The notes beneath the pieces are model-generated. The model searched no databases. It saw only the letters and a list, made by a program, of their open reading frames with translations, and was not told the origin of the DNA. 22,201 nt of DNA. It comes from a virus. Below, one piece after another: positions 3,193 to 14,352 of the stretch. The position numbers and the translations under genes are program-made. Every line of letters starts with the position of its first letter. The first letter of the stretch is position 1. The DNA is taken from positions 1-22,201 of IMG/VR virus record IMGVR_UViG_3300017741_001638; one strand, given 5' to 3'.

Positions 3193-3783
3193 TTGAAACA
3201 AGTAATTAATTGTTTAAAAGAAAATAATCCATATATAAATAAAAAATTAAAAGAGGTTACAGTAGATGAAGGACTTAAAATTGCGGAAGAGTTATTCAGG
3301 ATTCTTAATAAAAGAAAAGACGGAATTGGTCTTGCGGCTAATCAAGTGGGTATCGATGCTAGTGTTGCTGTGGTTAATGTTCGTGAACCTATAATTTTAA
3401 TTAATCCAAAAATAATTCAACAGTGGGGAGACGTTCCATATTACGAGGGTTGTTTATCGTTTCCAAAAAAATCAGTACAAACTAAAAGATTTAAAAATGT
3501 AATTATGACCACCGAACAAGAAGATGGTAAATTATATTTTAGTGGCGAGAGTAATCCAATTGACGGCAAAGGTAGTTGGGAAAAACAAGAGCAGAATGAG
3601 AATGATGCTGAAATAAGATTACTTGAAAGCATTTGTGTTCAGCATGAAATAGACCATCTTAATGGTATTGTTTGTATGGATAGAAGAATTGATTTAACTG
3701 TAATAAGAGAAGAAGTTAAAATTGGACGTAACGACCCATGTCATTGTGGTAGTGGTAAAAAATATAAAAAGTGTTGTATGTAA
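3193..3783 (+). CDS. def: Peptide deformylase with C-terminal SEC-C zinc motif
   Basis: Metalloenzyme that removes the N-formyl group from nascent proteins at the ribosome exit. All three deformylase motifs are present: [10 protein letters not shown] (residues 44-53), EGCLSFP (85-91; Cys is a metal ligand) and QHEIDHLNG (150-158; two His ligands and the catalytic Glu). An extra polar loop (about 116-138) lies between motifs 2 and 3. Residues 179-195 ([17 protein letters not shown]) are a SEC-C zinc motif of the type found at the C-terminus of SecA, where it binds zinc and the ribosome or SecB. The start is a TTG after GAGG; no upstream alternative exists. Many marine phages carry deformylase genes; the SEC-C fusion is the unusual part and may help ribosome docking (inference). 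Confidence 0.92.
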
Positions 3784-5262: not shown

Positions 5263-6453
5263 ATGTTTGATAAATTCTTTGATGTAGAAGAGTTTGATTA
5301 CGAGCTTGAAAAAAAGAAATTCGTAGATAATATGAATTTTCTTAAATCAATGTCGGTTCAAGAAATCACCCTATACAAAAAGTGGGAAGAGTTCAATAAG
5401 GACTCTTACGCTATGTTACAAAAAGCTTCCAAGTTTGATATATTAGAAAACACAATATGGATGCCATCCGACATCTATAATAAAGAACAAACCATAAAAG
5501 AGATAGAAGCGATTAGTCCTATCATACAAGTTGTAGAGCAGGGTAATCCTAAAGATAGTGACAATTGGACTATACTAAGAAGATTAATTCATACAATGGA
5601 GTTTACTGCTAATCCTGGCAGAAACGTAAAGTTCTATGTCAAAGATAAAAATACAGATAAAGTTTTAGGTCTTATATGTTTAGGTTCTGATGTTACATCA
5701 TTAGGCGCTCGTGACAAGTATATCGGTTGGACTAAGGATAATAAATTTAAGGATGGTAAATTAAATCATACATCAATCGGTACAACCATATGTTGTGTTC
5801 AACCATTAGGATTTAATTTCTTAGGTGGTAAGTTAGTAGCAGCTATGGTTACATCAAAGGTTGTTCGTGATACTTGGAAAAAATTATATAATCAAACGCT
5901 GGTCGGATTATCCACCACATCACTATATGGTATACACTCTATGTATAATGGTATTCCACATTGGAAAACATTAGGAGAATCATCAGGTAGAATAAGTTTG
6001 AAGCCAGATGACTCGGCTTACGATGTTTGGCATGAATGGATTAAAAAGAATAAGTCAGAAGAATATAAAAAGGCTACTACATCTAAAGAGGGTGTATCAG
6101 GTCCAGCTACAGGTGTGAAACAAAAAATTATAAAATTAATCTACGATGAGTTAGGTTTAAAACTTAAAACCTTTGAACATGGATTTCAACGTGGAATTTA
6201 CTTCGCTGACATCTACGAGAATGGTAGACCATTCCTTAGAGGTGAGATAGAAGAAAAAGATTTGGTTATGAAAAAGAAGTACGATGAAAATATAGAGTAC
6301 ATCGAAAGATGGTGGAAACCAAAAGCAATAAGAAGATACACCAAGTTGTTAGAGCAAAATAAGATAAAGCCAGAGAAGTTATTCTACGGCGATATTTTAA
6401 ATACAAGTTGGGAAGAAACTAAGAAAAAATATTTAGGAGAAGTGGGTCGGTAA
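5263..6453 (+). CDS. DUF4338/DruA-like protein, 396 aa
   Basis: Residues about 88-222 look like the DUF4338 (DruA) family: IIQVVEQGNPKD, then KVLGLICLGSDVTSLGARDKYIGW (133-156) with the family's hallmark LGSD and RDxYIGW blocks, then a FLGGKLVAAMVTSKVV block (186-201) and a C-terminal LVGLSTTSLYG. DruA is a component of the Druantia defence system; its biochemical activity is not known to me. The C-terminal 170 residues are basic and unassigned (RWWKPKAIRRYTKLL). The gene has its own promoter (P3) and starts with ATG at 5263. It neighbours a DUF262-like gene, so a defence, counter-defence or host-control role is plausible but inferred. Family call is from memory of the motif pattern. Confidence 0.6.
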   Translation: MFDKFFDVEEFDYELEKKKFVDNMNFLKSMSVQEITLYKKWEEFNKDSYAMLQKASKFDILENTIWMPSDIYNKEQTIKEIEAISPIIQVVEQGNPKDSDNWTILRRLIHTMEFTANPGRNVKFYVKDKNTDKVLGLICLGSDVTSLGARDKYIGWTKDNKFKDGKLNHTSIGTTICCVQPLGFNFLGGKLVAAMVTSKVVRDTWKKLYNQTLVGLSTTSLYGIHSMYNGIPHWKTLGESSGRISLKPDDSAYDVWHEWIKKNKSEEYKKATTSKEGVSGPATGVKQKIIKLIYDELGLKLKTFEHGFQRGIYFADIYENGRPFLRGEIEEKDLVMKKKYDENIEYIERWWKPKAIRRYTKLLEQNKIKPEKLFYGDILNTSWEETKKKYLGEVGR

Positions 6454-8343: not shown

Positions 8344-9693
8344 TTGAATATATTTCAATTCACAGATGTAACGGACAACGACAAAGAATATAAGTACAAG
8401 ATACTTGTATATCCAAATATCACATACCTAAAAGATTTGGAAAAAGATTCTTTCGTCGTTGTCCTTGGCAACATCATTCGAGAGTTAAATAAAATTAGAA
8501 ATGATTTACATTTCACGATAATTGTGCCTGAGTTTGTAAATAGTTTAAAATTTTCTAACACCGAACAATTACCATTAAAGAATGCTTTCTTAGGATATCC
8601 AAATTCGATGAGAATGGATTTTCCATTTCAAGATGTTTTCAAGGCTATAGATTGGAAAAGTTCTGATTATGATATTGTGTATTCTCATTTACCAGAGCAT
8701 ACGGGTAATCTAAAATGTTTATTAGAAAATACTACAAATATCAGACCATCTTTTATGGGTTATACTCATTGGACAGAATTAAAAGAGATTACAAATTATC
8801 ATTATAAAACTGGCTTGTCATATAACATTACTGGTCTTTTGGAAATGGAAAAATGTGGTGTGAATACACAAGCACAAAAAGATTTAATAATTAAAAATGC
8901 AAAAGAATATTTTAATGATGATGTGATTTCTAAATTAGATAATATTCTTGAACCACATTATCTTGGATGGGAAACTCCAAAGTATAAAAAACAAACCACG
9001 GATAAAAAGATTATTGTTTATAATCACAGACCACATACCTATAAAAACTATCCTTGGTTTTTAGAACAGATGGATAAGTTGTGGGAGCAAAGACAAGATT
9101 TTGAGGTATGGGTTCCGTTGGCTGAGAAGAAACAAAAAGATTATATGACAGTTGAAAAGTTTGATAGGGTTGGTTACTTTTCAAAACTTTCAAGTTGTGT
9201 GGTTGGTGTTTGTTGTAAACAGAAGTATGAGGGTTGGGCAGTATCAGCTACGGATGGTATGAGTGTGGGTGTTCCTTATATGTTTTCGGATGATGATAGT
9301 TACCATGAGTTAGCAGATTATGCTGGAATATATTATACGGACTCAGATAGTTTTCTTAATTTGATGAATACAGTATTGGATGATAATGATTTCAGAAATC
9401 AATATTCAAAAATGTCATTACTAAGATTTGAAAACTCAAAATGGGAAAACGCTATACATAAATTTAATCATTCTTTTAATGAGGTCATTAATAATTTACC
9501 AATTTTAAAAGATAAAACAGATTCTTATAAAAAGATTTTAAACTATATTCATAGTCGAGGTGGAGCAACAAAAAAAGAAATATTAGACTATATGGGATGG
9601 GGTGTAAGAATAGGGTTTAATGGATATAGAAACAAATTAAGAACCGAGCCTACAATTAGGTTCACTAAAAATAGATACGAGGTTATAAAATGA
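8344..9693 (+). CDS. GT-B glycosyltransferase with extra C-terminal domain, 449 aa
   Basis: The central and C-terminal parts look like a GT4-type GT-B glycosyltransferase that moves a sugar from a nucleotide donor. IIVYNHRPHTYKNYPWFLEQ (223-242) is the start of the second Rossmann domain, and YEGWAVSATDGMSVGVPYMFSDDDSYHEL (295-322) is the donor-binding E-x(7)-E-like region, here with GVP and an acidic patch. The N-terminal Rossmann half contains VYSHLPEHTG and GYTHWTEL. Residues about 395-449 (IHSRGGATKKEILDYMGWGV then a basic segment) form a winged-helix-like add-on. TTG start directly follows the previous stop; the 3' end overlaps the HD gene by 4 nt. Possible targets are phage DNA or host surface glycan; neither is shown. 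Confidence 0.8.
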   Translation: MNIFQFTDVTDNDKEYKYKILVYPNITYLKDLEKDSFVVVLGNIIRELNKIRNDLHFTIIVPEFVNSLKFSNTEQLPLKNAFLGYPNSMRMDFPFQDVFKAIDWKSSDYDIVYSHLPEHTGNLKCLLENTTNIRPSFMGYTHWTELKEITNYHYKTGLSYNITGLLEMEKCGVNTQAQKDLIIKNAKEYFNDDVISKLDNILEPHYLGWETPKYKKQTTDKKIIVYNHRPHTYKNYPWFLEQMDKLWEQRQDFEVWVPLAEKKQKDYMTVEKFDRVGYFSKLSSCVVGVCCKQKYEGWAVSATDGMSVGVPYMFSDDDSYHELADYAGIYYTDSDSFLNLMNTVLDDNDFRNQYSKMSLLRFENSKWENAIHKFNHSFNEVINNLPILKDKTDSYKKILNYIHSRGGATKKEILDYMGWGVRIGFNGYRNKLRTEPTIRFTKNRYEVIK

Positions 9694-10726: not shown

Positions 10727-11486
10727 ACAACAAGCAAAAATAAACGCAATGAAGAAACCTGTTAAAGTTGTTAAGAAGAAGAGACGTAAAAAAAGTAAAG
10801 TATATTTTGGAACGCCAGTGCAAGAGGCAATCATTAGATACAATGAATCATCGAATCCTGCAGAAAAAAATAAAATTTATGCAGAAGAGGTTCACGCAGC
10901 ATTTTGCAAGATGGCAGAAAACTTAATCCACACGTTTAAGTTTTATTATTTTGATTATCCTTTTGAAGAGGTAAAGAATGAGGTTGTTTCATTTTTGGTT
11001 ATGCAGATGCCAAAGTATGAACCAAGTAAAGGTAGAGCTTTTTCTTATTTTTCCGTTGTTGGGAAAAATTATCTGATTCTTAATAACAATAATAATTATA
11101 AGAAGATGAAGATACATGATGACATTGTAAAATTAGATTACAAACGGAATGTATTTTCAGAATCAGCAGATGTAGAAAATAGTGAGTTCAATAGTGAATT
11201 CGTTGTACAGATGTTAGATTATTGGGATAACAATCTTACAAATATCTTTCATAGACAAAAAGATATTTTAGTTGCAGATTCTGTATTAGAGTTGTTTAGG
11301 AAGAGAGCACATATTGAAAACTTTAATAAAAAAGCGTTATACATTATGATACGTGAGATGACTGGCAGTAACACTCAACATATAACTCGTGTCATTAATT
11401 CAATGAAAAAATTCTACGCTAATATGTTAGAGGAGTTTTCAAAAGATGGTGAGATTGATACATCGAATACAGGTAGTATATTCTAG
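10707..11486 (+). CDS. 55: Late-transcription sigma factor, gp55 family, 259 aa
   Basis: T4 gp55 is a small, divergent sigma factor that directs host RNA polymerase to late promoters (TATAAATA). Here residues 35-130 carry the family's region-2-like signature: TPVQEAIIRYN at the front, an AAFCKMAENLIHTFKFYYFD helix, FEEVKNEVVSFLVMQMPKYEP and KGRAFSYFSVVGKNYLI. The lysine-rich N-terminus (KKPVKVVKKKRRKKSK) and a longer tail make it larger than T4 gp55 (185 aa), as in other marine relatives. The start is an ATG 4 nt after AGAGGAG, overlapping the preceding gene. The presence of T4-late-type boxes at 14268-14330 agrees with it. The gene for its partner gp33 was not found in this window. Confidence 0.82.
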   Translation: MLAMPSKQQAKINAMKKPVKVVKKKRRKKSKVYFGTPVQEAIIRYNESSNPAEKNKIYAEEVHAAFCKMAENLIHTFKFYYFDYPFEEVKNEVVSFLVMQMPKYEPSKGRAFSYFSVVGKNYLILNNNNNYKKMKIHDDIVKLDYKRNVFSESADVENSEFNSEFVVQMLDYWDNNLTNIFHRQKDILVADSVLELFRKRAHIENFNKKALYIMIREMTGSNTQHITRVINSMKKFYANMLEEFSKDGEIDTSNTGSIF

Positions 11487-11743
11487 TGGGTTGGTTTTAT
11501 TTCCATTGTGTTTTAGCGTTAGTTATACTCGTAAAAAATTACAATGGCACATTAGAAGATTCTTTAAATAATTTCGAAGAACGAATTGGTATTAGAACAG
11601 AGTTACCACCTAAAGAGACTGGCGATACTGTTCCATATTACATACCACCTGTAGAGGAAAAGGTAGATTCTACTTGGATACTACCTGAGAGGTTACAGAT
11701 AAAAGAGGGGAAAGATAGTGGCAAAAAAAACAAGGGTTTATAA
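11486..11743 (+). CDS. Small membrane-anchored protein, 85 aa
   Basis: Starts at a GTG overlapping the sigma-factor stop. A short hydrophobic N-terminus (WFYFHCVLALVILV, residues 3-16) suggests a membrane anchor, followed by a proline-rich linker (PPKETGDTVPYYIPPVEE) and a charged tail. The PhoH gene begins 26 nt before its stop in another frame. I recognise no family. Confidence 0.5.
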   Translation: MGWFYFHCVLALVILVKNYNGTLEDSLNNFEERIGIRTELPPKETGDTVPYYIPPVEEKVDSTWILPERLQIKEGKDSGKKNKGL

Positions 11744-12470
11744 GTCACCGATTGGGGCGATTCCCAAAATTGTGAACAACATTAGTTTTAAGACACGGAA
11801 TCAAAAAATATTTTATGACATAATAAGTGAAGACCAAACGCAATTAGTTTTATGTCATGGTATAGCTGGTACAGGTAAAACCTACATCTCTGTTTATAAA
11901 GCGTTACAAGATGTGTTAAGACGTGGGACAGGCTATGATAAATTAATCATAATCAATCCTACTGTGGATGTTGGTAACGAGGATAAGTTAGGATACCTAC
12001 CTGGTGAGTTAGATAAAAAGATTCAACAATATAACGAATCAACTTTCACCATATTAGATAAGATTGTTGGTAAGGATAAAGCTACAAAATTATTATCCGA
12101 TGGTAAGGTTGAGATTAGTGTATTGAATTTTTTACGTGGAGTAAATTTAGAGAATTGTTATGTCATACTCGATGAGGCACAAAATGTTTCACCGATGCAG
12201 ATAAAGACCTTGATGACTCGTATATCAGAAAAGTGTAAGATGATTATACAAGGTGATATGAGTCAATGTGATAAGTACAAGACCAATGGTGTGACGAACT
12301 ACGAGAAGAGTGGATTCTATGATGCGTGGTTCAGACTCAAGGGTACAAAAGGTGTAAATCACATGGAGTTTGATAGAGAAGACTCTGTAAGACATGAATT
12401 AGTTAAAAGGATTTTAAAAACATATGAGGATGAACATCTAATAGATTTAGAAAAAAATATGGCGACGTAA
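11718..12470 (+). CDS. phoH: PhoH-like ATPase, 250 aa
   Basis: P-loop NTPase of the PhoH family, widespread in marine phages and often used as a phage marker gene. Walker A is HGIAGTGKT (47-55), and Walker B with following residues is VILDEAQN (149-156), matching PhoH. NPTVDVG (80-86) after the first strand and GYLPGELDKK (92-101) are family hallmarks, as is IIQGDMSQCD. The exact function is unsettled; proposed roles include RNA helicase/nuclease work and phosphate stress, and this sequence does not choose between them. GTG at 11718 follows a strong GAGGGGAA ribosome binding site and is the likely start. The tRNA-Ala gene begins 13 nt after the stop. Confidence 0.92.
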   Translation: MAKKTRVYKSPIGAIPKIVNNISFKTRNQKIFYDIISEDQTQLVLCHGIAGTGKTYISVYKALQDVLRRGTGYDKLIIINPTVDVGNEDKLGYLPGELDKKIQQYNESTFTILDKIVGKDKATKLLSDGKVEISVLNFLRGVNLENCYVILDEAQNVSPMQIKTLMTRISEKCKMIIQGDMSQCDKYKTNGVTNYEKSGFYDAWFRLKGTKGVNHMEFDREDSVRHELVKRILKTYEDEHLIDLEKNMAT

Positions 12471-12483
12471 GGTTAGCCGCTAT

Positions 12484-12556
12484 GGGGCTGTAGCTCAGTT
12501 GGGAGAGCGCCGCACTTGCACTGCGGAGGTCGCAGGTTCGATTCCTGTCAGCTCCA
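12484..12556 (+). tRNA. tRNA-Ala (anticodon UGC)
   Basis: A full 73-nt cloverleaf: acceptor GGGGCTG/CAGCTCC with the G3:U70 alanine pair, D arm GCTC/GAGC, anticodon stem CCGCA/TGCGG with loop CTTGCAC (anticodon TGC), and T arm GCAGG/CCTGT around TTCGATT. Discriminator A; CCA is not encoded. The acceptor arm is identical to that of the tmRNA at 4227, so the two RNAs share the AlaRS identity elements. Confidence 0.97.
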
Positions 12557-12566
12557 CAAGATTGTT

Positions 12567-13241
12567 ATGATAGAAATAAATAAATATAAAAATTACGATG
12601 AGATGTCTAAGTGGGTAGTAGAACAAATCAGAGATGCTATCAACTTTAATTCTGTAACAAAACATTTTACATTAGGATTAGCAACTGGTTCTACACCACT
12701 TGGTATATATAAATACATGCGTGATGAGACTTGGGATTCTAAAAAGGTATATACATTTAATCTTGATGAGTATGCCGACTTACCATACAACCATCCACAA
12801 TCATATGAACACTTCATGGAAGAAAACTTATTTGCATATAAACAATTTAGATATAGTTATTTCCCTGAGAATGAAAGGTATGATGACATCATTAAGAACA
12901 ATGGTGGTATAGATATACAAATACTTGGTATTGGTACTAACGGACATATAGCATTTAATGAACCAGGCTCACCAAGAGATTCTCTTACAAGGAAAGTGGA
13001 GTTAACAGAAAATACACGTAAGGATAACAGTAGGTTCTTTGATATTATTGATGATGTCCCAACTCATGCTTGGACTATGGGGATAGAAAGTATTATGAGA
13101 GCTAAACAAATTTATCTGTTAGCTAATGGTAAACACAAGAAAGATATTTTAGAGAAAGCATGTTATGGTGATATCACTTCAGACATACCGGCTTCCTATT
13201 TACAAGAACACAATAATATAGAGGTATTGTACTGTGATTGA
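12567..13241 (+). CDS. nagB: NagB-like glucosamine-6-phosphate deaminase, 224 aa
   Basis: Converts glucosamine-6-phosphate to fructose-6-phosphate and ammonia. Matches the NagB/6-phosphogluconolactonase family: LGLATGSTP (36-44, phosphate loop), FNLDEY (64-69, with the catalytic Asp67), GIGTNGHIAFNEPG (121-134, with the catalytic His127 and Glu132), then a RKDNSRFF block and TMGIESIMRAK (170-180). NagB of some bacteria also has Asn at the position of E. coli Asp141 (here Asn125), so this is not by itself a sign of inactivation. The C-terminus ends soon after the core. ATG at 12567 is chosen; the frame continues upstream into the tRNA gene, which cannot be coding. The next gene overlaps by 8 nt, giving a two-gene amino-sugar unit. 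Confidence 0.88.
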   Translation: MIEINKYKNYDEMSKWVVEQIRDAINFNSVTKHFTLGLATGSTPLGIYKYMRDETWDSKKVYTFNLDEYADLPYNHPQSYEHFMEENLFAYKQFRYSYFPENERYDDIIKNNGGIDIQILGIGTNGHIAFNEPGSPRDSLTRKVELTENTRKDNSRFFDIIDDVPTHAWTMGIESIMRAKQIYLLANGKHKKDILEKACYGDITSDIPASYLQEHNNIEVLYCD

Positions 13242-13731
13242 CAAAATAATGATTGTTGCTCATCCTGATGATGAGGCGTTATTTGGTGGGGCTGAATTAC
13301 TATCCCATCCAGATGAATATAAAGTTGTAGTATTAGATGAGTATCAGAATGATATAAGAAGAAGAGAGTTCTTAGATAGTATGAGGTTTATCGGTATTCA
13401 CGAATACGAACATTGGACTGGCTTCAAAGGTGCTGAGGATTATTATAGGGAAAAACTTATATATGAACTACTGAGAGTTTTAAGGGAAAGAAAATATACC
13501 AAGATAGTAACACACAATACCGATGGAGAATATGGACACCCGCGACATAGAGCTTGTCACGATGTATTGTCACACCTTAGACCTGAGAAACTATGGGTGT
13601 TTGGTAGGGGTGAAAAATTAGATGACGATATGATAAAAAGAAAAAGTGAATTGTTAAAGGTATATAAATCACAAGTAGAAGTTTTAGATTGGTTTAATTG
13701 GGAATATGAAACGATAAGAAAATTTCAATAA
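13234..13731 (+). CDS. PIG-L/LmbE-family deacetylase-like protein, 165 aa
   Basis: Zinc-dependent deacetylases of the PIG-L (LmbE) family remove acetyl groups from N-acetylglucosamine compounds. The hallmark AHPDDE (residues 9-14) opens the protein, with a likely second metal-ligand cluster in THNTDGEYGHPRHRACHD (93-110), whose GHPRH fits the family's HPDH-type block. At 165 aa it is shorter than many members (over 200 aa), so it may be a minimal core. GTG at 13234 overlaps the nagB stop, implying coupling. Paired with NagB it could deacetylate GlcNAc-type substrates and feed the deaminase; the actual substrate (free sugar, glycan, conjugate) cannot be read from sequence. Confidence 0.78.
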   Translation: MIDKIMIVAHPDDEALFGGAELLSHPDEYKVVVLDEYQNDIRRREFLDSMRFIGIHEYEHWTGFKGAEDYYREKLIYELLRVLRERKYTKIVTHNTDGEYGHPRHRACHDVLSHLRPEKLWVFGRGEKLDDDMIKRKSELLKVYKSQVEVLDWFNWEYETIRKFQ

Positions 13732-13736
13732 TAAAT

Positions 13737-13808
13737 GGCCCGTTCGTCTAGTGGTTAGGACTCAGGATTTTCATTCCTGCAACAGGGGTTCGATTCCCCT
13801 ACGGGCTA
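13737..13808 (+). tRNA. tRNA-Glu (anticodon UUC)
   Basis: A 72-nt cloverleaf: acceptor GGCCCGT/ACGGGCT (G1:U72 wobble), D arm GTCT/GGAC, anticodon stem CAGGA/TCCTG with loop TTTTCAT (anticodon TTC), and T arm AGGGG/CCCCT around TTCGATT. Discriminator A. CCA is not encoded. It is immediately followed by tRNA-Thr. Confidence 0.95.
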
Positions 13809-13812
13809 CATC

Positions 13813-13885
13813 GCCATCTTAGCTCAGTTGGTAGAGCAGTTCATTAGTAATGAACAGGTCGTCAGTTCGAATCTGACAGATGGCT
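13813..13885 (+). tRNA. tRNA-Thr (anticodon AGU)
   Basis: A 73-nt cloverleaf: acceptor GCCATCT/AGATGGC, D arm GCTC/GAGC, anticodon stem GTTCA/TGAAC with loop TTAGTAA (anticodon AGT), and T arm GTCAG/CTGAC around TTCGAAT. Discriminator U. G1:C72 and C2:G71 match threonine identity elements. An A at position 34 is rare in bacterial tRNA-Thr, which usually has G, U or C there. Confidence 0.93.
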
Positions 13886-13893
13886 CAGAAAAC

Positions 13894-13923
13894 AAAAAAG
13901 GGAAGCTTTCACTTCCCTTTTTT
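13894..13923. terminator. Bidirectional rho-independent terminator
   Basis: GGGAAG (13900-13905), six-base loop, CTTCCC (13912-13917), flanked by six A before and six T after, so either strand ends in a U run. It closes the + strand tRNA transcript and the - strand gene 13965-14186, which converge here. Confidence 0.9.
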
Positions 13924-13928
13924 ATTGC

Positions 13929-13945
13929 CCTACATTGATTGTAGG
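13929..13945. repeat. Small perfect hairpin
   Basis: CCTACA (13929-13934), five-base loop, TGTAGG (13940-13945). It lies between the bidirectional terminator and the stop of the - strand gene. No U run follows on either side, so it is not itself a terminator; it may protect the - strand mRNA's 3' end. Confidence 0.45.
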
Positions 13946-13964
13946 AATGTAGAGCTATTCCGTC

Positions 13965-14186
13965 CTACTTGCGAAATAAACCCACCAACACCAATAAGGC
14001 GACAAGCCCAGCGAAGCCTGACTCGCCGAACTTATTAATGATGGATGTGAGGTTACCTATAACGTTGACGCCAAAGATACCAGACCCAAATATTACTTCA
14101 GATACAGCACCTATAGCCACAAAAGACATTAATAGATGAGCTAAGTCATCTACATATCCTTTGACCATTGTTACGACTTCCTTCAT
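13965..14186 (-). CDS. Small two-span membrane protein (holin-like), 73 aa
   Basis: This is the only gene read on the - strand. The product has two hydrophobic spans, near residues 15-34 and 56-71, separated by a glycine-rich middle (FGSGIFGVNVIGNLTSIINK). A short charged C-terminus follows (GLFRK). Size and topology resemble phage holins or related small membrane proteins, but no specific family is recognised. The start ATG has a strong upstream GGGAG ribosome binding site. Its leader holds a terminator-like hairpin and two TATAAATA late motifs. Codon use looks like that of the neighbours. Confidence 0.7.
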   Translation of the reverse strand: MKEVVTMVKGYVDDLAHLLMSFVAIGAVSEVIFGSGIFGVNVIGNLTSIINKFGESGFAGLVALLVLVGLFRK

Positions 14187-14207
14187 GGTTTTCTCCCGTT
14201 AGTTAAC

Positions 14208-14248
14208 AAAAAAAAAGGTCACACGATTTTTTAAGAACCGAGTAACCT
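14208..14248 (-). terminator. Terminator-like hairpin in the leader of the - strand gene
   Basis: Read on the - strand: AGGTTAC (14248-14242), 19-nt loop, GTGACCT (14222-14216, one G:U pair), then a run of nine T. That is a rho-independent terminator layout placed before, not after, the 14186 gene. Possible attenuation is an inference. Confidence 0.55.
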
Positions 14249-14267
14249 CTATAATAACTATATGGTT

Positions 14268-14275
14268 GATAAATA
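14268..14275 (+). promoter_or_regulatory. T4-late-type promoter motif for the structural operon
   Basis: GATAAATA on the + strand, 78 nt before the ATG at 14353 and the first virion gene. It fits the NATAAATA late motif used by T4-like phages through gp55. One short motif in AT-rich DNA can arise by chance. Confidence 0.5.
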
Positions 14276-14290
14276 AAAATTCACGATATA

Positions 14291-14298
14291 TATTTATA
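14291..14298 (-). promoter_or_regulatory. TATAAATA late motif for the - strand gene
   Basis: Exact TATAAATA on the - strand (TATTTATA on +), 93 nt before the start of the - strand gene. It matches the T4 late promoter consensus. A second copy lies 25 nt further upstream. Confidence 0.5.
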
Positions 14299-14322
14299 TA
14301 TTAGTATTTTTTTTGATTTATA

Positions 14323-14330
14323 TATTTATA
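14323..14330 (-). promoter_or_regulatory. Second TATAAATA late motif for the - strand gene
   Basis: Exact TATAAATA on the - strand, 32 nt upstream of the first copy. The region is extremely AT-rich, so one copy may be fortuitous. Confidence 0.4.
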
Positions 14331-14352
14331 ATTGACAACACATAGGTAAATC

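What the first reader, a model, noticed from the sequence alone, without database searches (positions are those of the whole stretch)
12567..13731. Two-gene NagB plus PIG-L amino-sugar unit in a phage
A deaminase-like gene overlaps a deacetylase-like gene by 8 nt, flanked by tRNAs. Together they could turn N-acetyl amino sugar into a glycolytic intermediate and ammonia, or edit an amino-sugar precursor for surface or DNA glycosylation. A glycosyltransferase lies 3 kb upstream. Catalytic residues of both look intact.
Basis: partly seen in the sequence, partly recalled or inferred. Interest (0 to 1): 0.62.

Follow-up and report, generated by a model that had tools for sequence, protein, structure and literature searches.

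The report
Phage amino-sugar deacetylase-deaminase gene pair
A phage carries two overlapping genes that look like an enzyme pair for stripping the acetyl group and then the nitrogen off an amino sugar, and many other viruses carry the same pair, which suggests it helps them feed on the host's own sugar building blocks.

Summary
NagB-like (12567-13241) and PIG-L-like (13234-13731) genes overlap by 8 nt between a tRNA-Ala and a tRNA-Glu, with catalytic residues kept. It is not a one-off: of 41 viral contigs with a relative of this NagB, 37 show what lies downstream; 32 have the PIG-L gene directly behind, one has it 2.7 kb on, four have none. The overlap is exactly 8 nt in 26 of 35 pairs. Trees put all viral NagBs in one clade inside glucosamine-6-phosphate deaminases, far from 6-phosphogluconolactonases; the PIG-L model matches sugar N-deacetylases (Z 16-17), although one hydratase scores equally. 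Nineteen sibling phages that share the backbone, including the upstream glycosyltransferase, lack the pair, so it is accessory cargo and the glycosyltransferase is no evidence for its role. Bacteroidota carry an independent NagB+PIG-L fusion, often without NagA, sometimes beside a hexosaminidase. Most likely the pair salvages N-acetylglucosamine to fructose-6-phosphate, acetate and ammonia; substrate and direction are inferred. Surface or DNA glycan editing stays possible, because close PIG-L relatives are fused to glycosyltransferases in other viruses. My literature searches found no description of the pair.

The parts
12567..13241 (+). NagB-like glucosamine-6-phosphate deaminase, 224 aa, without the C-terminal part that E. 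coli NagB has
   Evidence: PF01182 1.3e-17; TIGR00502 206 bits vs 6-phosphogluconolactonase TIGR01198 45 bits, both under their equivalog cut-offs; tree; alignment with E. coli NagB
13234..13731 (+). short PIG-L/LmbE-family deacetylase, 165 aa, GTG start
   Evidence: PF02585 1.9e-11; AlphaFold2 model pLDDT 91; Foldseek and VIA-align to sugar deacetylases
13234..13241 (+). 8-nt overlap GTGATTGA of NagB stop and PIG-L start, AGAGG upstream of the GTG
   Evidence: same 8-nt overlap in 26 of 35 pairs
12484..12557 (+). tRNA-Ala (TGC) directly upstream of the pair
   Evidence: ARAGORN
13737..13809 (+). tRNA-Glu (TTC) directly downstream of the pair
   Evidence: ARAGORN
13813..13886 (+). tRNA-Thr (AGT)
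   Evidence: ARAGORN
11486..14352 (.). accessory block (85-aa ORF, PhoH, tRNAs, NagB, PIG-L, small minus-strand ORF) missing in 19 sibling phages, where 94-406 nt lie between the flanking backbone genes

Best explanation
An accessory two-enzyme amino-sugar salvage unit of phages. Inferred steps: the PIG-L protein, a Zn-dependent N-deacetylase, removes the acetyl group from GlcNAc or its 6-phosphate, doing the job that NagA does elsewhere; the NagB protein then converts glucosamine-6-phosphate to fructose-6-phosphate and ammonia. During infection this would turn the host's amino-sugar pool (cell-wall and UDP-GlcNAc turnover, inferred) into carbon for glycolysis or ribose phosphate and into nitrogen. 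Shown here: the two families, intact active sites, conserved overlapping pairing, purifying selection, one viral clade of deaminases, no NagA match in the viral records searched, and the accessory nature of the block. Not shown: substrate of the deacetylase, direction, and benefit to the phage. The host is probably a Bacteroidota bacterium (inferred from the nearest isolate phages).
For: Pairing: of 41 contigs with this NagB 4 are cut before the next gene; of the other 37, 32 have PIG-L directly downstream, 1 has it 2.7 kb on, 4 have none. Overlap of 8 nt in 26 of 35 pairs, 11 nt in 4, 89-nt gap in 4, 2.7 kb in 1. Median dN/dS 0.15 (PIG-L) and 0.33 (NagB) over 126 of 171 locus pairs. The genes trade partners yet stay together: L011/L012 share NagB (dS 0.37) but not PIG-L (dS 3.2); window/L014 share PIG-L (dS 0.60) but not NagB (dS 2.1). 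The flanking genes differ between virus groups, the pair does not. NagB tree: 22 of 22 viral rows plus one Poribacteria MAG row form one clade (100/99) inside the deaminases. Bacteroidota carry NagB fused to a different PIG-L lineage; frames of 600 aa or more in 56 of 148 genomes; NagA passes its cut-off in 10 of those 56 but in 8 of 12 genomes with stand-alone NagB only, Fisher p 0.0015; a gene whose representative is a GH20 hexosaminidase lies near the fusion in 5 of 18 loci. NagA model: 0 of 12 viral records. Fold: diacetylchitobiose deacetylase, BshB, MshB, teicoplanin deacetylases at Z 16-17.
Against: No substrate evidence. No equivalog cut-off of NCBIfam is reached by either protein. PIG-L enzymes of known specificity act on glycoconjugates or free sugars, not on GlcNAc-6-phosphate as far as I recall. 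PIG-L relatives in other viruses are the C-terminal part of glycosyltransferase proteins, which points to glycan making. Four of 37 informative contigs (two lineages) keep NagB without PIG-L, and L085 keeps PIG-L without a NagB match in a 213-kb record. The hydratase GalB also scores Z 16.0, so the fold alone does not prove deacetylation. The Bacteroidota PIG-L domain is not a close relative of the phage one, so that parallel is an analogy.
Confidence: 0.55

Rival explanations
1. Glycan or DNA-sugar editing: PIG-L deacetylates a GlcNAc residue or nucleotide sugar for a phage-made surface or DNA glycan, and NagB adjusts the amino-sugar pool.
For: Window-type PIG-L is the C-terminal domain of about 1240-aa GT4-GT9-(GT-A-like by eye) proteins in L094 and L105, beside a sugar C-methyltransferase-like gene in L105; closest viral fold matches are short mimivirus PIG-L proteins.
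Against: Those PIG-L fusions form another branch and have no NagB in their loci; the window's glycosyltransferase is backbone, present in 19 siblings without the pair; a deaminase that destroys the amino sugar fits poorly with making one.
Confidence: 0.2
2. Nitrogen and ribose supply for phage nucleotide synthesis: NagB is the key gene, its ammonia and fructose-6-phosphate feed glutamine, PRPP and base synthesis; PIG-L only supplies substrate.
For: NagB lies beside a glutamine-synthetase-like gene, with a glutamine-amidotransferase/phosphoribosyltransferase and IMPDH nearby, in L021; after ThyX in the L009-type cassette; after a QueD-like and before a radical-SAM-like gene in L033.
Against: These are three virus lineages among neighbours that differ everywhere; the window has no such neighbour. 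Nucleotide genes are common in large phages, so linkage may be chance.
Confidence: 0.13
3. NagB runs backwards, making GlcN-6-P from fructose-6-phosphate and ammonia, and PIG-L acts elsewhere in amino-sugar synthesis.
For: The reaction is reversible (established knowledge); large viruses can encode amino-sugar synthesis (recalled for mimivirus).
Against: Bacteria already have GlmS; equilibrium favours deamination at low ammonia (both established knowledge); the cellular fusion sits in some genomes near hexosaminidase and SusD genes, that is, in catabolic loci.
Confidence: 0.06
4. Hitch-hiking cargo without joint function, kept together only by its position among tRNAs.
For: The window pair lies inside a tRNA group in an accessory block; L036 too is flanked by tRNAs.
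Against: Same 8-nt overlap in lineages without tRNAs nearby, purifying selection on both genes, partner exchange with the pairing kept.
Confidence: 0.04

Closest known systems
NagA-NagB pathway of E. coli
   Same: Deacetylation followed by deamination to fructose-6-phosphate; NagB is homologous (36% identity)
   Different: The deacetylase is of another superfamily (PIG-L, not amidohydrolase NagA); phage NagB lacks the C-terminal part
Bacteroidota NagB-PIG-L fusion (NCBIfam NF002557/PRK02122, 'glucosamine-6-phosphate deaminase-like protein')
   Same: Same two families joined; phage NagB scores 189 bits to its N-terminal part; weakly supported sister of the viral clade (90/76)
   Different: One protein instead of two; its PIG-L domain is a distant lineage that the phage PIG-L model does not hit at 1e-2
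Archaeal diacetylchitobiose deacetylase (Dac), with the Thermococcus chitin pathway (pathway recalled)
   Same: PIG-L fold, top Foldseek hits; a PIG-L deacetylase feeding a GlcN-6-P deaminase
   Different: Dac is about 260-270 aa, acts on chitobiose, 15-18% identity; the archaeal deaminase is of another family (recalled)
MshB / BshB deacetylases of mycothiol and bacillithiol synthesis
   Same: Fold and metal-site motifs
   Different: 14-27 bits against cut-offs of 182-224; the thiol pathway was not looked for
Mimivirus short PIG-L proteins
   Same: Short viral PIG-L, 29-30% identity, TM 0.80-0.84
   Different: Giant viruses of amoebae; pairing with NagB not looked at

Membership tests
Glucosamine-6-phosphate deaminase (NagB) | Groups with NagB, not with 6-phosphogluconolactonase | tested here: met
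   Tree; TIGR00502 206 bits vs TIGR01198 45 bits
Glucosamine-6-phosphate deaminase (NagB) | Reaches the NCBIfam equivalog cut-off | tested here: not met
   206.1 bits, cut-off 236.9; the match stops at position 238 of 259, so shortness may explain it
Glucosamine-6-phosphate deaminase (NagB) | Active-site D72, H143, E148, K208 (E. coli numbering, recalled) | tested here: met
   D67, H127, E132, K191; D141 is N as in the solved enzymes aligned
Glucosamine-6-phosphate deaminase (NagB) | Deaminates GlcN-6-P | not testable with these tools
   needs an assay
PIG-L/LmbE deacetylase superfamily | Profile match and fold | tested here: met
   PF02585 45 bits, cut-off 28.2; Z 16-17
PIG-L/LmbE deacetylase superfamily | Metal and base motifs HPDD and HxxH | tested here: met
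   invariant in 17 of 17 rows, aligned with MshB
PIG-L/LmbE deacetylase superfamily | Acts on an N-acetyl sugar | not testable with these tools
   GalB hydratase shares the fold
MshB, Mca, BshB1, BshB2 | Reaches the equivalog cut-off | tested here: not met
   14-27 bits vs 182-277
NagB-PIG-L fusion NF002557 | Both domains in one chain, PIG-L of the same lineage | tested here: not met
   two genes; separate PIG-L branch
Phage auxiliary metabolic gene | Host-like metabolic gene, optional in the phage group | tested here: met
   19 of 20 loci with both flanking genes lack it

The most novel reading that the evidence does not exclude
A widespread viral strategy of eating the host's amino sugars: unrelated large phages share and trade a two-gene cassette, in which a PIG-L enzyme replaces NagA, so that cell-wall and UDP-GlcNAc stocks are burnt to fructose-6-phosphate and ammonia to pay for phage nucleotides. 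Bacteroidota evolved the same pairing independently as a fusion protein.
Probability: 0.35. Interest if true: 0.7.

Novelty: new variant of a known kind. Interest (0 to 1): 0.5.

Why it matters
Phage metabolic genes are known mainly for photosynthesis, nucleotides and phosphate (general knowledge). A recurring, exchangeable amino-sugar unit would add carbon and nitrogen salvage from the amino-sugar pool to that list. It also predicts, testably, that a PIG-L enzyme stands in for NagA both in phages and in many Bacteroidota.

Tried and rejected
Rejected: (1) 6-phosphogluconolactonase. (2) Direct descent of the whole pair from the Bacteroidota fusion: the PIG-L halves are on far branches and the phage model does not hit the fusion's C-terminal part; the NagB half may share an ancestor (90/76, weak). 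(3) The upstream glycosyltransferase as a partner: backbone gene. (4) Presence in isolate phages: PIG-L none in 50,697 records at 1e-3; NagB hits in 32 records, all under 60% identity and without annotation, whose phage nature I did not check. (5) Close cellular source of PIG-L: 80 loci kept of 274 in genome contigs, one with NagB within 6 kb (L145, Poribacteria MAG); only 2 of 84 genomes of its phylum hit the PIG-L model, one of them weakly (24 bits). (6) DNA comparison of the block with phages: 277 records match, five rows read, all at the tRNAs. (7) Plasmids: one Paenibacillus hit.

Weak points: dS values are near saturation for most pairs. Fused genomes were counted by open frame of 600 aa or more; a PIG-L motif was seen in 20 of 22 fetched fused-length frames and Pfam was run on one. 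Four NagA-like hits of 181-218 bits, just under the cut-off, were not counted as NagA; three of them (G122, G154, G158) are in the fused group, which would make 13 of 56. Viral contigs are not independent: several are near-identical. The second structure job and a third Foldseek job were not used.

Full report
What is there. The window is a 22,201-base IMG/VR virus record. A 224-aa NagB-like ORF (12567-13241) and a 165-aa PIG-L-like ORF with a GTG start (13234-13731) overlap by 8 nt and fill the space between a tRNA-Ala and a tRNA-Glu. Pfam places both above its cut-offs. NCBIfam scores the first far better as NagB (206 bits) than as 6-phosphogluconolactonase (45 bits), though under the NagB equivalog cut-off of 236.9; the second reaches no named deacetylase. 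Active-site residues are kept in both.

How common the pair is. Scans of viral contigs found 34 loci with the protein and 41 with an alignment of relatives. Four of the 41 end before the next gene could be seen. Of 37, 32 have the PIG-L gene directly behind NagB, one (L021) 2.7 kb on, and four (L026, L031, L032, L033; two lineages) have none. Of 35 pairs, counting the window and one bacterial MAG, the overlap is exactly 8 nt in 26, 11 nt in 4, there is an 89-nt gap in 4, and one is the L021 case. Several contigs are near-copies of each other, so the number of independent cases is smaller.

The pair as the unit. In one large virus group it follows a kinase-like and a ThyX gene and precedes, in part of the group, a RimK-like gene; in others it lies among tRNAs, near a glutamine-synthetase-like gene or among unknown genes. 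Both genes are under purifying selection, and their distances correlate over 19 loci (Mantel r 0.43, p 0.0001), but partner exchange is visible: L011 and L012 share NagB but not PIG-L, the window and L014 the reverse.

Accessory nature. A scan with the window's glycosyltransferase gave 23 loci. Twenty of them hold both genes that flank the block; L306, a near-identical phage, has the pair and the other 19 do not, with only 94-406 nt at that place. The glycosyltransferase itself is in all of them, so its nearness says nothing about the pair.

Family trees. NagB tree, 59 rows: the 22 viral rows and the Poribacteria MAG row form one clade (100/99) within deaminases; seven 6-phosphogluconolactonase-like rows, classed by their low NagB score, stand apart (100/100); the Bacteroidota fusion is a weak sister (90/76). 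Two rows of a second fusion type were dropped before that tree was built. PIG-L tree, 55 rows: viral pair members, L085 and the MAG form a clade (93/88) next to Firmicutes and to glycosyltransferase-fused viral rows; the Bacteroidota fusion domain is very distant. Thus the NagB/PIG-L link appears to have arisen at least twice.

What the cellular parallel says. In 148 Bacteroidota genomes the NagB model hits 79. Fused-length frames occur in 56, of which 10 have NagA over its cut-off; of 12 with stand-alone NagB only, 8 have NagA, and the other four have a second, about 790-aa NagB-bearing frame; two such frames read hold a PIG-L-like motif by eye. A GH20-type gene cluster (Pfam on one representative) is near the fusion in 5 of 18 loci and a SusD-type cluster in 3. 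This fits GlcNAc use with PIG-L in the place of NagA. None of 12 viral records hit the NagA model; they may be fragments.

Fold. The PIG-L model (pLDDT 91) finds diacetylchitobiose deacetylase, BC1534/BshB and MshB first; VIA-align gives Z 15.6-17.1 for these and their kin and also 16.0 for the hydratase GalB, so the fold supports but does not prove N-deacetylation. The best viral models are short mimivirus PIG-L proteins.

Host. The nearest isolates for a baseplate protein are Microcystis phage Mel-JY01 (47%) and Flavobacterium phage immuto (41.5%); for another protein of the same phage lineage, immuto, Mel-JY01 and Rhodothermus phage RM378. A Bacteroidota host is likely, not shown.

Literature. 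Ten searches were made in the open-access library. Only listings and abstract starts were seen (20 of 39 papers listed); no paper was opened. None of the listed titles or abstract starts describes a phage NagB-PIG-L pair.

Verdict. The best reading is an accessory amino-sugar salvage unit of phages, with substrate and direction inferred.

Noticed in passing
L105:5839-9594, L094:5848-9570, L095:6667-9570: Window-type PIG-L is the C-terminal domain of viral proteins of up to 1251 aa with GT4-like and GT9-like domains; a sugar C-methyltransferase-like gene lies nearby in L105.
   Followed up: partly
L096-L102: A PIG-L domain whose frame is open only if TGA is read through; by eye TGA stands where relatives have aromatic residues, which suggests a recoded phage (sequence read for L096 only).
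   Followed up: no
L033:7433-12126: NagB without PIG-L between a QueD-like (PTPS) gene and a radical-SAM-like gene, followed by a weak glycosyltransferase match and an epimerase: perhaps a 7-deazaguanine or sugar-modification cluster.
   Followed up: no
L021:3229-12923: Two related ORFs, one matched as glutamine synthetase, then NagB, a DUF6071 gene, a glutamine-amidotransferase/phosphoribosyltransferase, PIG-L and IMPDH in a row.
   Followed up: no
window 5263-6453: DruA-like protein (PF14236, 2.1e-28), part of the backbone of this phage group; function in a phage unknown.
   Followed up: no
window 8344-9693: Glycosyltransferase with a C-terminal stretch that looks by eye like a winged-helix DNA-binding domain; backbone gene, no match in 50,697 phage records.
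   Followed up: partly
window 13813-13886: Phage tRNA-Thr with anticodon AGT, unusual for bacteria (recalled).
   Followed up: no
window 3193-3783: Peptide deformylase with a C-terminal SEC-C motif.
   Followed up: no
L009:12836-13672: Glycosyl hydrolase family 6 (cellulase family) gene near the pair in the ThyX-type phage group.
   Followed up: no
L145:5343-6537: The same pair in a 316-kb contig of a Poribacteria MAG beside a TIM-barrel sugar-isomerase-like gene; strong PIG-L match in only that one of 84 genomes of the phylum, so a transfer or a misbinned viral contig.
   Followed up: partly
L036:3365-3737 and L310:1101-1503: tmRNA genes called in viral contigs.
   Followed up: no
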